From contig JAAHFU020000001.1 in NCBI GenBank assembly GCA_010672825.2, positions 2,542,001-2,606,000 on the forward strand: 64,000 nt of DNA, read 5' to 3'. The notes beneath the pieces were generated by a model. The model was not told the origin of the DNA and did no database searches. It saw nothing but the letters and a program-made list of their open reading frames with translations. This document shows positions 373-60,972 of the stretch, one piece after another. This stretch comes from Leptolyngbya sp. SIO1E4. GTDB taxonomy: Bacteria > Cyanobacteriota > Cyanobacteriia > Phormidesmidales > Phormidesmidaceae. The translations under genes and the position numbers were made by a program. Each line of letters opens with the position of its first letter. The first letter of the stretch is position 1.

Positions 373-468
373 CTTAGCCTTGTTCAGGTGAGTCCAGTAC
401 ATCCGGGTCAAGACAGGGTCTAGGGTTTGGGGTCTAGGGTGTGCTTGATTAGCCTGCATACCGCTATC
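373..468 (-). repeat. Dispersed repeat A, copy 1 (MITE-like)
   Basis: This is a reverse-oriented copy of a roughly 97-bp repeat. Its diagnostic core, read on the minus strand, is CACCCTAGACCCCAAACCC followed by a block ending TGTACTGGACTC. Outer ends resemble the inverted termini CTATAGC/GCTATAG seen best in the copy at 10333-10430. A 12-bp direct repeat CCTTTCTCTTAG lies at 366-377 and 473-484, flanking the element, and could be a target-site duplication. The copy fills most of the gap between the GFA gene and the MATE gene; nothing else is visible there. Confidence 0.8.
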
Positions 469-4433: not shown

Positions 4434-4612
4434 ACATTTGGCGGCATAATTGCAGACTAATCAAGCACACCCTAGACCCCAAACCCTAGACCCTGTCTTG
4501 ACCCGGATGTACTGGACTCAACTGAACAAGGCTTTGCATTCGGATAACGCCCCCCTAGCCCCCAAACCCTGTCATGATCCGGATGTACTGGACTCCACTA
4601 AACAAGGCGATA
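4434..4612 (+). repeat. Dispersed repeat A, copies 2a and 2b in tandem
   Basis: Two head-to-tail copies of repeat A. The first spans about 4434-4530 and is nearly full length. The second, about 4531-4612, is shortened in the CCCTAGACCC core and carries CCCCCTAGCCCCCAAACCCTG instead of the doubled unit. Both end with the conserved block GGATGTACTGGACTC followed by AACAAGGC. The end of copy one serves as the start of copy two, suggesting unequal recombination or insertion of one into the edge of the other. With the octamer cluster upstream, this accounts for the 4297-4705 gap. Confidence 0.8.
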
Positions 4613-10189: not shown

Positions 10190-10279
10190 ATATCGCAAAA
10201 TACAGAAATCAGAAATCAAACCCTTGTTGCATAAGGATTCCAGCAAATCTGACTGTCCTAACCAGCCCTTCAGATGCAA
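10190..10279 (+). repeat. Dispersed repeat B, copy 1
   Basis: This matches repeats at 28375-28482 and 55921-56017. The shared core is GCATAAGGATTCCAGCAAAT followed by a block reading CTGTCCTAACCAGC and CTTCAGATGCAAT. The best copy (55921) contains the hairpin GGATTTC-AG-GAAATCC. This copy directly abuts repeat C on its right, so one probably inserted next to or into the other. No coding potential is visible. Confidence 0.7.
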
Positions 10280-10468
10280 TACAGCATTTCCTTTCTGGGT
10301 GAGGTACAGCTTATTTCCTGAGATCAAGGGTTCTATAGCGGTATGCAGGCTAATCAAGCACACCCTAAACCCCAAACCCTAGCCCCTGCCTTGACCCAGA
10401 TGTACTGGACTCACCTGAACGAGGCTATAGGTAGATCTGTGTACCTCACTGGATTCAGAAACGCTGTA
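10280..10468 (+). repeat. Dispersed repeat C, copy 1, split by a nested element A
   Basis: The left arm (10280-10332) starts TACAGCATTTCC and contains GTGAGGTACA. The right arm (10431-10468) contains TGTACCTCACT and ends AGAAACGCTGTA. Together the arms match the uninterrupted 95-bp copy at 26528-26622. Exactly between them sits a complete repeat A (10333-10430). This is a clear nested insertion and proves that A moved after C was in place. Confidence 0.8.
10333..10430 (+). repeat. Dispersed repeat A, copy 3 (complete)
   Basis: This is the reference copy of family A: 98 bp, starting CTATAGC (10333-10339) and ending with its exact inverse GCTATAG (10424-10430). The core CACCCTAAACCCCAAACCC and the block GATGTACTGGACTC are conserved with the other copies. 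Insertion into repeat C defines both ends precisely. It has no open reading frame, so movement in trans by another element's enzyme is inferred. Confidence 0.85.
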
Positions 10469-24055: not shown

Positions 24056-24152
24056 CTATTGCGGCTTGCATTTGGAGCAAGTACACCCTAGACCCCAAAC
24101 CCTAGACCCTGCCTTCACCAAAACGTACTGGATTGACCTGAATAGGGCTATA
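24056..24152 (+). repeat. Dispersed repeat A, copy 4
   Basis: Starts CTATTGC (24056-24062) and ends GGCTATA (to 24152). It keeps the core CACCCTAGACCCCAAACCC and the block ACGTACTGGATTGACCTGAA, with several point changes relative to the reference copy at 10333. It fills much of the gap before mraY on the convergent side and has no reading frame. Confidence 0.8.
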
Positions 24153-26527: not shown

Positions 26528-26622
26528 TACAGCATTTCCTTGCCTGGTGAGGTACATCAATTTATCTGAGCACAAGGGCTTCAGGTCATTATTTGTACCT
26601 CACTAGCTTCAGAAACGCTGTA
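26528..26622. repeat. Dispersed repeat C, copy 2 (uninterrupted)
   Basis: A 95-bp imperfect palindrome starting TACAGCATTTCC and ending GAAACGCTGTA, with inner arms GGTGAGGTACA and TGTACCTCACT. It is the undisturbed counterpart of the split copy at 10280-10468. It begins directly after the PAP/fibrillin stop codon. Confidence 0.75.
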
Positions 26623-27130
26623 AAGAGGGTTATCTTGGTGCTGTTCTCGGGGCACCTCTAAGGGGCTTTGCTGAAAGCTAGAGCGCCGCCGCATCCTCTA
26701 AGAGGAGTCTAGATAAAAAAATCATCCCGCGATAGGAACCCAGTTTCTCTCAAGCCCCAACCTCTTTGGTTGGTCTTTGCAGAAACTCAGTTCCTGGGCA
26801 CATTACTTTTGGTAGCACTCTAAATATTGAGATAGCGAAAGTGATCTCAAAAATTTAGAGTGCTCAGGAACTCTGCTTGACGTTCTACGTCTGGGTTTGA
26901 TGCGGGAGACTGTATCTTTAGGCTAGGCTTTTCAGCGAAGGTTCAGAACCTAAGCTTCGCTAGCTCTATAGGACTGGATCCTTGAAAAATTGTTCTCGAC
27001 GTCGCCCTGTCTCTATAGATGGGAGATCATAATCCCTATGTTAGAGAAGTAGCTGAGCTACCTAAAATTCGGTAAGCTCCAGGGTGAGCACACGCCCCAG
27101 TTCTGAAGTCCTGTTTACAGAAATCGGGTT
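26623..27130. other. Highly structured intergenic region
   Basis: Apart from repeat D, three further hairpins are present. A long one pairs AGCACTCTAAATATTGAGAT (26814-26833) with its near-complement at 26844-26864. Outer arms AGTTCCTG (26789-26796) and CAGGAACT (26865-26872) are exact complements but compete with the repeat D pairing. A third pairs AGCGAAG (26934-26940) with CTTCGCT (26955-26961). No gene is visible. A leader, small RNA or nested repeats are all possible. Confidence 0.55.
26720..26798 (+). repeat. Dispersed repeat D, copy 1, with inverted arms
   Basis: AGGAACCCAGTTTCT at 26734-26748 pairs with AGAAACTCAGTTCCT at 26781-26795 (two mismatches). The left part, AATCATCCCGCG to GTTTCTCTCAA, recurs on the minus strand at 60629-60662. 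Palindromes of this GTTTCT type are widespread in cyanobacterial genomes as small mobile repeats; that link is from general knowledge, not from a search. Confidence 0.6.
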
Positions 27131-28374: not shown

Positions 28375-28482
28375 TTATAGCGGTATATGGTAAGAGGCAG
28401 AAATCAGAAATCAGAAATCAAAGCCTTGCTGCATAAGGATTTCAGGAAATTTGATTGTCCTAGCTAGCGCTTCAGATGCAAT
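28375..28482 (+). repeat. Dispersed repeat B, copy 2
   Basis: Begins TTATAGCGGTAT, the same terminal sequence as repeat A, then runs through GCAGAAATCAGAAATCAG repeats to the family B core GCATAAGGATTTCAGGAAAT and TTCAGATGCAATA. The right end is not well defined. It lies between the acidic-protein gene and sbcD. Confidence 0.65.
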
Positions 28483-37290: not shown

Positions 37291-37388
37291 CTATATGGCG
37301 GTTTACATTCGGATAAAGTACACCTCAACCCCAACCCCTAGGCCCTGTCTTGACCCAGATATACTGGACTCGACTGAGTAGGGCTATA
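37291..37388 (+). repeat. Dispersed repeat A, copy 5, ending in the tsaB stop codon
   Basis: Begins CTATATGGCGG (37291) and ends GGGCTATA (37388). The core reads CACCTCAACCCCAACCCCTAGG, with GATATACTGGACTCGACTGA after it. The terminal CTA at 37384-37386 is, on the minus strand, the TAG stop of tsaB, so the element borders the gene's last codon exactly. Confidence 0.8.
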
Positions 37389-38013: not shown

Positions 38014-38852
38014 GGTTCAGTGCGAACGGTGCCATCCGGCATCACTGTGTTGCTAAAGGTCGCACCGTCTAACATGGCGTTTTCTAAGTTGGCTTCCTGG
38101 AAGCTGGCTGTGGTCAAATCAGCTCCGCTGAGGTTCACATTGGTTAACTCTGCTTTTTCTAAGATTGCAGCGTTGAGGTTTGCGCCTAAAAGGTTGGCCT
38201 CTTTCAAGTTGGCTGCTTTGAGATTGGCTTTCTCTAGGTTGGCCCGGTTAAGACGAGCGCCACTCAGATTACTGCCTGCCAAACTGGCTTCTTTCAAATT
38301 TGCGCTAGAGAGACGGGCGTCGATTAAGATGGCCTCTGCTAAGTCTGCCTGGGCTAAGTTGGCCCGCTGCAGTTCAGCGCGTTTGAGGTTTGCGGCACTC
38401 AGGTTTGCGGCACTTAGGTTGGCCCGACTCATTTCGACACCAATCAAGCTGGCTTTGCTGAGATTACATTGACTCAGATTTACATTGCTCAGATCTGAGC
38501 GGTTGAGGTTGACTCCGGTGAGAATGGCTCTGTTGAGAATCGTGTCTGCCAGGTCAGCCCCGAGTAAATTCGCACCGGTGAGATCAGCCCCTGTCAGGTT
38601 GGCCTTATTGACGTCCGCGCCACTGAGGTCAGCGCGGGTGAGGGTGGCGTCAGTTAAGTCTGCCTCAGAGAGAGAGGCCCCGATGAAGTTTGTGCGGGAA
38701 AAGTTCACGCCTTTGAGGTTAGCCGCATTGAGGGAGGCGTTGCTCAGGTTGGCCCGGCTCAAATCAATCTCCAAGCCTGGGTTTTCTTCACGCCAATGAT
38801 TCCAGTCTTCAATGCCTGCCCTGAGTTTTGCAAGTTGCTCTTCATTCGCCAT
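38010..38852 (-). CDS. Cytosolic pentapeptide-repeat protein
   Basis: A 280-residue protein with no signal peptide. After about 30 residues (starting MANEEQLAKLRAGIEDWNHW) it has around 45 uninterrupted A(N/D)LXX pentapeptides up to the last 15 residues, predicting a long right-handed beta-helix. Some such proteins mimic DNA and protect gyrase; most have no known role. Translation is coupled to tsaB by an ATGA overlap. Confidence 0.9.
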   Translation of the reverse strand: MANEEQLAKLRAGIEDWNHWREENPGLEIDLSRANLSNASLNAANLKGVNFSRTNFIGASLSEADLTDATLTRADLSGADVNKANLTGADLTGANLLGADLADTILNRAILTGVNLNRSDLSNVNLSQCNLSKASLIGVEMSRANLSAANLSAANLKRAELQRANLAQADLAEAILIDARLSSANLKEASLAGSNLSGARLNRANLEKANLKAANLKEANLLGANLNAAILEKAELTNVNLSGADLTTASFQEANLENAMLDGATFSNTVMPDGTVRTEP

Positions 38853-53883: not shown

Positions 53884-53980
53884 CTTAGCGCGGTTTGCAT
53901 GGGGATCAAGGACATCCTAGACCCCAACCCCTAGACCTGGTCGTGACCGAGATGTACTGGACTCAACTGAATAAAGCTAT
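53884..53980 (+). repeat. Dispersed repeat A, copy 6
   Basis: Begins CTTAGCGCGG (53884) and ends AAAGCTAT (53980), both worn versions of the CTATAGC/GCTATAG ends. The core CATCCTAGACCCCAACCCC and the block GAGATGTACTGGACTCAACT are conserved. It lies between two convergent genes. Confidence 0.78.
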
Positions 53981-55920: not shown

Positions 55921-56017
55921 CTATAGCAAAAGGTAGAAAGTAGAAGGCAGAAGGCAAAACCCTGCTGCATAAGGATTTCAGGAAATCCGATTGTCCTAAC
56001 CAGCACTTCAGGTGCAA
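55921..56017 (+). repeat. Dispersed repeat B, copy 3
   Basis: Starts CTATAGC (55921-55927), as in family A, then a purine-rich stretch (AGGTAGAAAGTAGAAGGCAG) and the family B core. The core here holds a perfect hairpin, GGATTTC-AG-GAAATCC. The copy ends at CAGGTGCAATA. No matching GCTATAG right end is seen. Confidence 0.7.
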
Positions 56018-56091
56018 TATTCAGAGTTGGCAGTCACGATTAGGACATCACAGGAACCCCAGGATCTGGTCTCCCCGAACGGTCAATCCCA

Positions 56092-60628: not shown

Positions 60629-60662
60629 TTGAGAGAAACTGGGTTCCTCGCGCGGGATGATT
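60629..60662 (-). repeat. Dispersed repeat D, copy 2 (partial)
   Basis: On the minus strand this repeats AATCATCCCGCG, two variant bases, then AGGAACCCAGTTTCTCTCAA from 26720-26757. It lies just after the STAND gene stop; the right-hand inverted arm seen in copy 1 is missing. Confidence 0.55.
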
Positions 60663-60678
60663 GTTATCGAGACACTTC

Positions 60679-60972
60679 TCAGGAAGACTCTTCTAGAATT
60701 TTCGGCACCTTGAAAAAGTCATCTTCTCGATCCGGCGCTTTGCCGAGCAAGCCCTCGCGATCGCTAAACAGTTCTAGCTGATCAGAGCGAGTAATGTTAC
60801 TGACCTCAATCGCGCGGGTCGTGGGTGGCACGTCCGCAGTCTCTAACTCGTTCAGTTGCTCAATATAATCCAGGATGCCATTGAGCTGGGTGGTGAACTG
60901 TGTTTCCTCTTCTGGGGTCAGTTCAAGCCGCGCTAAATGAGCCACCTTATGGACTTGTTCGAGATCAATCAT
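60679..60972 (-). CDS. gatC: Aspartyl/glutamyl-tRNA amidotransferase subunit C
   Basis: A small 97-residue subunit that links GatA and GatB in converting Glu-tRNA(Gln) (and Asp-tRNA(Asn)) to the amide form. The sequence [20 protein letters not shown] and the C-terminal [15 protein letters not shown] are typical. gatA and gatB lie elsewhere, as usual in cyanobacteria. It lies 51 bases after ycf3 and probably shares its transcript. Confidence 0.96.

What the first reader, a model, noticed from the sequence alone, without database searches (positions are those of the whole stretch)
10280..10468. Nested insertion: repeat A sits exactly inside repeat C
The two arms of C at 10280-10332 and 10431-10468 match the uninterrupted C copy at 26528-26622, and the interruption is a complete 98-bp repeat A with ends CTATAGC/GCTATAG. 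This defines A's boundaries and shows it has moved as a unit. Repeat B abuts C on the left, making a three-element cluster between DUF2330 and the RnfD-like gene.
Basis: seen in the sequence. Interest (0 to 1): 0.62.

Follow-up and report, generated by a model that had tools for sequence, protein, structure and literature searches.

The report
Jumping DNA repeat inside another repeat
In what looks like a cyanobacterial genome, one tiny jumping DNA repeat has landed inside another, and the same two spots of the host repeat are occupied in several other copies too; this is ordinary behaviour for such elements, here visible in unusually clear detail.

Summary
The nested insertion is real. Repeat C (95 bp, hairpin, TA at both ends) is interrupted at 10334-10429 by repeat A. 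The proper empty form is not the 26528 copy (arms 79-80% identical) but a second subfamily, C2 (arms 91-100% identical), whose consensus reads GGGTTC-TA-GGTAG where the window has A. Insertion adds 94 bp: a 92-bp element plus a duplicated TA; the outer C and G of "CTATAGC/GCTATAG" belong to C. A is best explained as an IS630 (Tc1/mariner)-type MITE: TA duplication, an ANHTADNT-like target profile, and ends resembling those of an IS630-type element in the same genome.

It is not a single event: 9 of 23 C2 copies carry A, at only two TAs, in both orientations at one of them. Same-site A's are 81-97% identical to each other but each compared has a free A at 98-100%, so most are probably separate landings, though composite spread plus gene conversion is not excluded. 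The two TAs are the best of C2's six by A's own target profile; the remaining 6-14-fold excess cannot be told apart from that for A in repeat B. In 26 of 26 sampled C copies from other genera C holds no A. A well-resolved new member of a known kind.

The parts
10280..10468 (+). repeat C, subfamily C2, interrupted by A
10280..10333 (+). left arm of C2 (TACAGC...GGGTTC)
10334..10429 (+). repeat A with the duplicated target TA at both ends (92-bp unit between the TAs)
   Evidence: empty against filled C2
10430..10468 (+). right arm of C2 (GGTAG...CTGTA)
10191..10281 (-). repeat B, sharing the TA 10280-10281 with C
   Evidence: model match 10194-10280
375..467 (-). A copy
4450..4534 (+). A copy, incomplete at one end
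4533..4612 (+). A copy, incomplete at one end
24057..24152 (+). A copy
37294..37388 (+). A copy
53887..53980 (+). A copy
28390..28482 (-). B copy
55925..56018 (-). B copy

Best explanation
A and C are two different non-autonomous mini-transposons (MITEs) that use TA as target. An IS630/Tc1-mariner-type transposase pasted A into the TA of a CTAG inside an already resident C2 element, duplicating TA. Shown: empty and filled forms, the TA duplication, the resemblance of A's ends to those of an IS630-type element in the same genome, A's target profile, and the presence of A in 9 of 23 C2 copies at two TAs. Inferred: that the transposase acted in trans on A, that most of the nine are separate landings, and that C2 collects A because two of its TAs fit A's target preference and because landing in a MITE in intergenic DNA does little harm. 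No function for the host cell is needed to explain it.
For: Empty C2 (GGGTTCTAGGTAG) against filled (GGGTTC-TA-A-TA-GGTAG). Nine filled among 23 C2 with a recognisable right arm: TA55 with A forward in L031, L032 (window), L034, L027; TA55 reversed in L029; TA33 reversed in L033, L035, L036, L067. Typed A consensus against the ends of an IS630-type element, L051, with HTH_32 and DDE_3 domains: 25, 21, 21 and 17 identities of 30 for the four end pairs, with 0, 0, 0 and 2 of 5000 shuffles as good. 107 free A sites: A at -3 in 49%, T at +3 in 50%, G at -1 in 7%, C at +1 in 4%; by that profile TA33 and TA55 are the two best of C2's six interior TAs (87th and 93rd percentile of sampled genome TAs). 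A's of same-site copies are 89.6-93.8% (TA55 forward, three compared) and 81.2-96.9% (TA33, four compared) identical, while each of nine nested A's tested (L027 left out, L068 included) has a free A at 97.9-100%. L033 and L035 differ at 21 of 96 A bases but 1 of 95 arm bases; 4 of 9 same-site pairs are separated in this way at uncorrected p under 0.05. 38 of 42 A hits in a 464-kb sample lie outside ORFs of 100 aa or more.
Against: No transposition was observed; both copies found of the candidate parent IS are damaged. A's two ends are imperfect repeats of each other. All four A's at TA33 point the same way and four of five at TA55, as a spreading composite would also give. Five of nine same-site pairs are not separated by the A-against-arm comparison. 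Three landings are certain from place and orientation; up to nine are possible.
Confidence: 0.9

Rival explanations
1. A landed only three times in C2 (TA55 forward, TA55 reversed, TA33 reversed); the composites then spread as units by C's own transposition, and their A's were later overwritten by gene conversion from free A's.
For: Same orientation in 4 of 4 TA33 copies and 4 of 5 TA55 copies. The outer TAs of C are intact in 8 of 9 filled copies and the flanks differ by eye, so composites could have moved. Expected landings in C2 are 0.7-1.5, so three would not be remarkable.
Against: Nested A's fall one by one among free A's on a tree (9 changes for 9 labelled rows; random labels give 9 in 144 of 200). 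Of seven differences shared by two or more C2 copies (21 compared, L027 and L072 not among them), two join empty copies only and five involve filled copies; none of the five joins two copies filled at the same place. With so few differences this last test is weak. The idea needs conversion over most of a 96-bp tract in several composites.
Confidence: 0.12
2. C2 is a genuine hot spot: its hairpin extrudes as a cruciform and the transposase prefers the DNA at its tip.
For: All nine insertions, and a tenth in L068, lie outside the main stem (positions 30-66), none at TAs in the stem. C2 and C1 fold better than shuffles (RNA z -4.1 and -6.7, DNA z -2.8 and -4.5). After weighting by target motif and restricting to non-ORF DNA the excess is 6-14-fold. 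C1 has no complete A in 9 copies against 9 of 23 for C2 (Fisher p 0.035).
Against: The two TAs within the stem nearest the middle score badly on A's profile anyway (19th and 9th percentile), and motif alone puts 72% of C2's weight on TA33 and TA55. A in B shows an excess that cannot be told apart (2 seen among 148 A's, 0.19-0.44 expected). C1 folds better yet is not hit; one truncated C1 (L194) does sit beside an A fragment. TA55 is weakly paired in the predicted folds.
Confidence: 0.2
3. A and C are not mobile elements but parts of a host structure (RNA or terminator module) that vary by recombination.
For: C is a strong hairpin with conserved arms.
Against: No Rfam match at gathering score in the window; clean TA duplication among differing flanks, C inserted into B with TA duplicated (L002), IS630-like ends on A.
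Confidence: 0.02

Closest known systems
IS630 / Tc1-mariner elements and MITEs moved by them; ISY100 of Synechocystis
   Same: TA target duplicated on insertion; ISY100 inserts almost only at TA and slightly prefers A/T in the three bases on either side (PMC2170065, abstract and passages; PMC6400869, abstract and passages). IS630 is credited with preferring TA in CTAG in the title of Tenzen and Ohtsubo 1991 (title seen in a reference list); TA55 here is in CTAG.
   Different: A has no transposase; its supposed parent (L051) was not compared with ISY100; A's profile is ANHTADNT-like rather than merely A/T-rich.
RUP (with BOX and SPRITE) of Streptococcus pneumoniae
   Same: About 107-bp repeat thought to be moved in trans by IS630-Spn1, TA target; [quoted passage not shown]
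   Different: No sequence relation was tested. Here one host subfamily is occupied at the same two places in several copies.
Nezha and the MITEs of Anabaena sp. 90
   Same: Short repeated elements in cyanobacteria; in Anabaena 90, 132 of 147 are intergenic (PMC3542288, passages). Nezha is only named in passages seen.
   Different: No sequence comparison was made; the Anabaena 90 MITEs were reported to share no ends with that genome's ISs.

Membership tests
IS630-derived MITE (repeat A) | TA target duplicated on insertion | tested here: met
   empty against filled C2; TA at both ends of 116 of 148 collected copies
IS630-derived MITE (repeat A) | terminal sequences shared with an IS630-type element of the same genome | tested here: met
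   25, 21, 21 and 17 of 30 identities between A's and the L051 element's ends; 0, 0, 0 and 2 of 5000 shuffles as good; DDE_3 and HTH_32 domains
IS630-derived MITE (repeat A) | short, many copies, no transposase gene | tested here: met
   96 bp with the TAs, too short for a transposase; 330 pattern matches in 8.2 Mb
IS630-derived MITE (repeat A) | perfect or near-perfect terminal inverted repeats | tested here: inconclusive
   TATAGC at both ends, imperfect further in (sequences)
IS630-derived MITE (repeat A) | moved by that transposase | not testable with these tools
   needs an experiment; both IS copies found are damaged
TA-target MITE (repeat C) | TA duplication | tested here: met
   C inside B at ATCCT-TA...TA-TGCAG, L002
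TA-target MITE (repeat C) | terminal inverted repeats | tested here: met
   TACAGCRTTTC at both ends; hairpin folds
TA-target MITE (repeat C) | parent IS with the same ends in the genome | tested here: not met
   none of 18 DDE_3 loci inspected (of 21 matches) shows TACAGCRTTTC ends; C is therefore not filed under a named IS family

The most novel reading that the evidence does not exclude
The tip of the C2 hairpin is a true structural hot spot: an IS630-type transposase homes to extruded small hairpin elements, so that one MITE family serves as a landing pad for another beyond what sequence preference and neutrality explain.
Probability: 0.17. Interest if true: 0.5.

Novelty: new member of a known kind. 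Interest (0 to 1): 0.3.

Why it matters
Repeats inserted into one another are reported in bacteria, but here nine occupied copies of one small host element act as replicate targets, so the target preference of a little-studied IS630-type system can be read from a genome and compared with the sites it did not use. It also shows that repeated landings at one place can look like a spreading composite. It changes no general picture.

Tried and rejected
Composite spreading as one unit: set aside as the main reading because same-site A's are on the whole more different from each other than from free A's. The one-clade (AU) test of treekit stopped with an error asking for two different rows on each side, so no such test exists. 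Structural hot spot: kept as a rival. Host RNA: no Rfam match. Parent of C: none found; L059's ends begin TACAGCGTAAATT, not C's. My first inverted-repeat scan, threshold 17 of 24, did not show the L050/L051 element; it was found by end motif. The exact pattern CTATAGC...GCTATAG matched only 7 places, one of them another repeat, because the outer C and G come from the target. Paper searches gave precedents but no report of this pair; only that open library was searched, and one search returned nothing.

Left out of counts: L027 (its A lacks 13 bp) is among the 9 filled but not in the tree or; L068 (a C2 without right arm, A at a third place) is in the tree but not in the 9 of 23; L024 (decayed C2) is in neither; L007's C1 right arm is too diverged. 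C1/C2 labels are mine, by letters. The 464-kb sample is a grid of 20 stretches plus the window, and the window was not chosen at random. Non-coding DNA is approximated as DNA outside ORFs of 100 aa or more. In one search the number of B copies was set to 70, 110 or 160, run at the same time, counts 128 pattern matches. The 148 A's used there are a convenience set. The genome search scored only part of the first-look candidates for DNA queries (40 of 516, 40 of 50, 40 of 194), so those lists are lower bounds; the pattern counts are whole. Searches list only part of the places.

Full report
Setting. The window is part of an 8.22-Mb, 12-contig genome; no other genome of its genus appears among those searched. 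The named records in which a C left-arm pattern matches exactly are Leptolyngbya sp. RL_3_1, Leptolyngbyaceae cyanobacterium SM2_5_2 and Vasconcelosia minhoensis, so a cyanobacterium is inferred. The finding lies between a DUF2330 gene and an NQR2/RnfD/RnfE-family gene.

Observation. C runs from 10280 to 10468 and is interrupted by A at 10334-10429 (with TA at each end). C copies in this genome fall into two subfamilies. The 13 listed empty C2 copies (L009-L019, L021, L022) match the arms at 91-98% (left) and 92-100% (right); all have the target TA, and 8 of 13 read GGGTTCTAGGTAG exactly. Filled copies have 94 bp more: a 92-bp unit plus a duplicated TA. B ends at the TA with which C begins (10280-10281), so B and C share a TA. 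L002 shows C inserted at a TA inside B, which shows C's own TA duplication.

How often. The C right-arm pattern (up to 3 mismatches) has 32 matches and none for the reversed control. By their letters 23 are C2 and 9 are C1. Nine of the 23 C2 hold A: at TA55, forward in L031, L032 (the window), L034 and L027 (A lacking 13 bp at one end), reversed in L029; at TA33, reversed, in L033, L035, L036 and L067. The other 14 hold no A, one of them (L072) with a small internal duplication near TA55. L068 is a further C2 in which A follows position 64 and the right arm is gone. None of the 9 C1 holds a complete A; one truncated C1 (L020/L194) abuts an A fragment.

Separate landings or one composite? The A's of same-site copies are 89.6-93.8% (TA55 forward; three compared) and 81.2-96.9% (TA33; four compared) identical to each other, while each of nine nested A's tested (L027 left out, L068 included) has a free A at 97.9-100%. 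L033 and L035 differ at 21 of 96 A bases but only 1 of 95 arm bases; L032 and L034 at 10 of 96 against 2 of 95. Four of nine same-site pairs are separated at uncorrected p under 0.05, five are not. On a tree of 150 A's the nine nested ones need nine changes, as random labels do in 144 of 200 draws. Of seven base differences shared by C2 copies, five involve filled copies and none joins two filled at the same place, a weak test. Against separate landings: orientation is the same in 4 of 4 and 4 of 5 copies, and gene conversion of A within spread composites is not excluded. Three events are certain from place and orientation; most of nine is the likelier reading.

Why there. From 107 free A insertions the target profile is A at -3 (49% against 22% background), T at +3 (50% against 23%), little G at -1 (7% against 22%) and little C at +1 (4% against 22%). 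With it, TA33 and TA55 are the best two of C2's six interior TAs (87th and 93rd percentile of TAs in the sample; the others 74th, 73rd, 19th and 9th). Weighting by profile and restricting to DNA outside ORFs of 100 aa or more, 0.7-1.5 landings in C2 are expected for 330-744 A copies; nine are seen, 6-14-fold (with slightly different training gave 0.7-1.6). If only three landings took place, the excess would be small. For B the same sum gives 0.19-0.44 expected among 148 A's against 2 seen, an excess whose interval overlaps. So sequence preference explains which TAs are used, and a general tolerance of landings in MITEs may explain the rest; a hot spot made by C2's hairpin is not excluded.

What moves A. 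The genome holds 21 DDE_3 matches. One element, L051 (contig 1, about 2119095-2120625), begins and ends with TATAGCGGTGTGCA and encodes HTH_32 and DDE_3 domains. Its right end is identical to A's left end at 25 of 30 bases and to A's right end at 21 of 30 (typed A consensus). It has an extra stretch of about 510 bp relative to the second copy, L050, which lacks the right end (by eye); a search shows these two copies and one 28-bp match (40 of 194 candidates scored). So the likely source of the transposase is damaged here, although several A's are identical, which speaks for activity not long ago. No element with C's ends was found among 18 DDE_3 loci inspected.

Relatives. The C left-arm pattern matches in 11 of 63 genomes of the family, this one included. 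The 26 fetched matches from other genomes (of 63 such matches) each cover the C model in one piece (63-113 bp), with no A in those loci. The nine stretches do the same but overlap this set. Distant A-like copies, not in C, occur in G022 and G006.

Known or new. ISY100 work shows TA insertion with duplication for an IS630-family element from a cyanobacterium (PMC2170065, PMC6400869; abstracts and passages). [quoted passage not shown] The case is a new member of a known kind, with unusually many occupied copies of one host element.

Noticed in passing
L057 1766-1898 (contig 2, near 1222250): An A-like copy abuts a truncated IS630-type transposase gene of another type (end TATAGCAATCCG).
   Followed up: partly
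L067 346-534: In this filled C2 a stem base pair has changed on both sides (T to G in the left arm, A to C in the right), keeping the hairpin paired.
   Followed up: no
L072 240-355: A C2 without A has a short direct duplication around the TA55 target, perhaps a trace of an excised element or a plain tandem duplication.
   Followed up: no
L002 1501-1595: C inserted at a TA inside a B element, with TA duplicated.
   Followed up: yes
L012 1594-1595: An A-like copy and a C2 share a single TA, as B and C do in the window at 10280-10281: flanking TAs seem to be reused as targets.
   Followed up: partly
L078 154-249: An A inserted within another A.
   Followed up: no
window 38173-38753: Degenerate repeats in steps of 15 bases, as in pentapeptide-repeat protein genes (recalled, not tested).
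   Followed up: no
window 26702-26753 and 60629-60680: A further inverted pair of 52 bases (81% alike), perhaps another repeat family.
   Followed up: no
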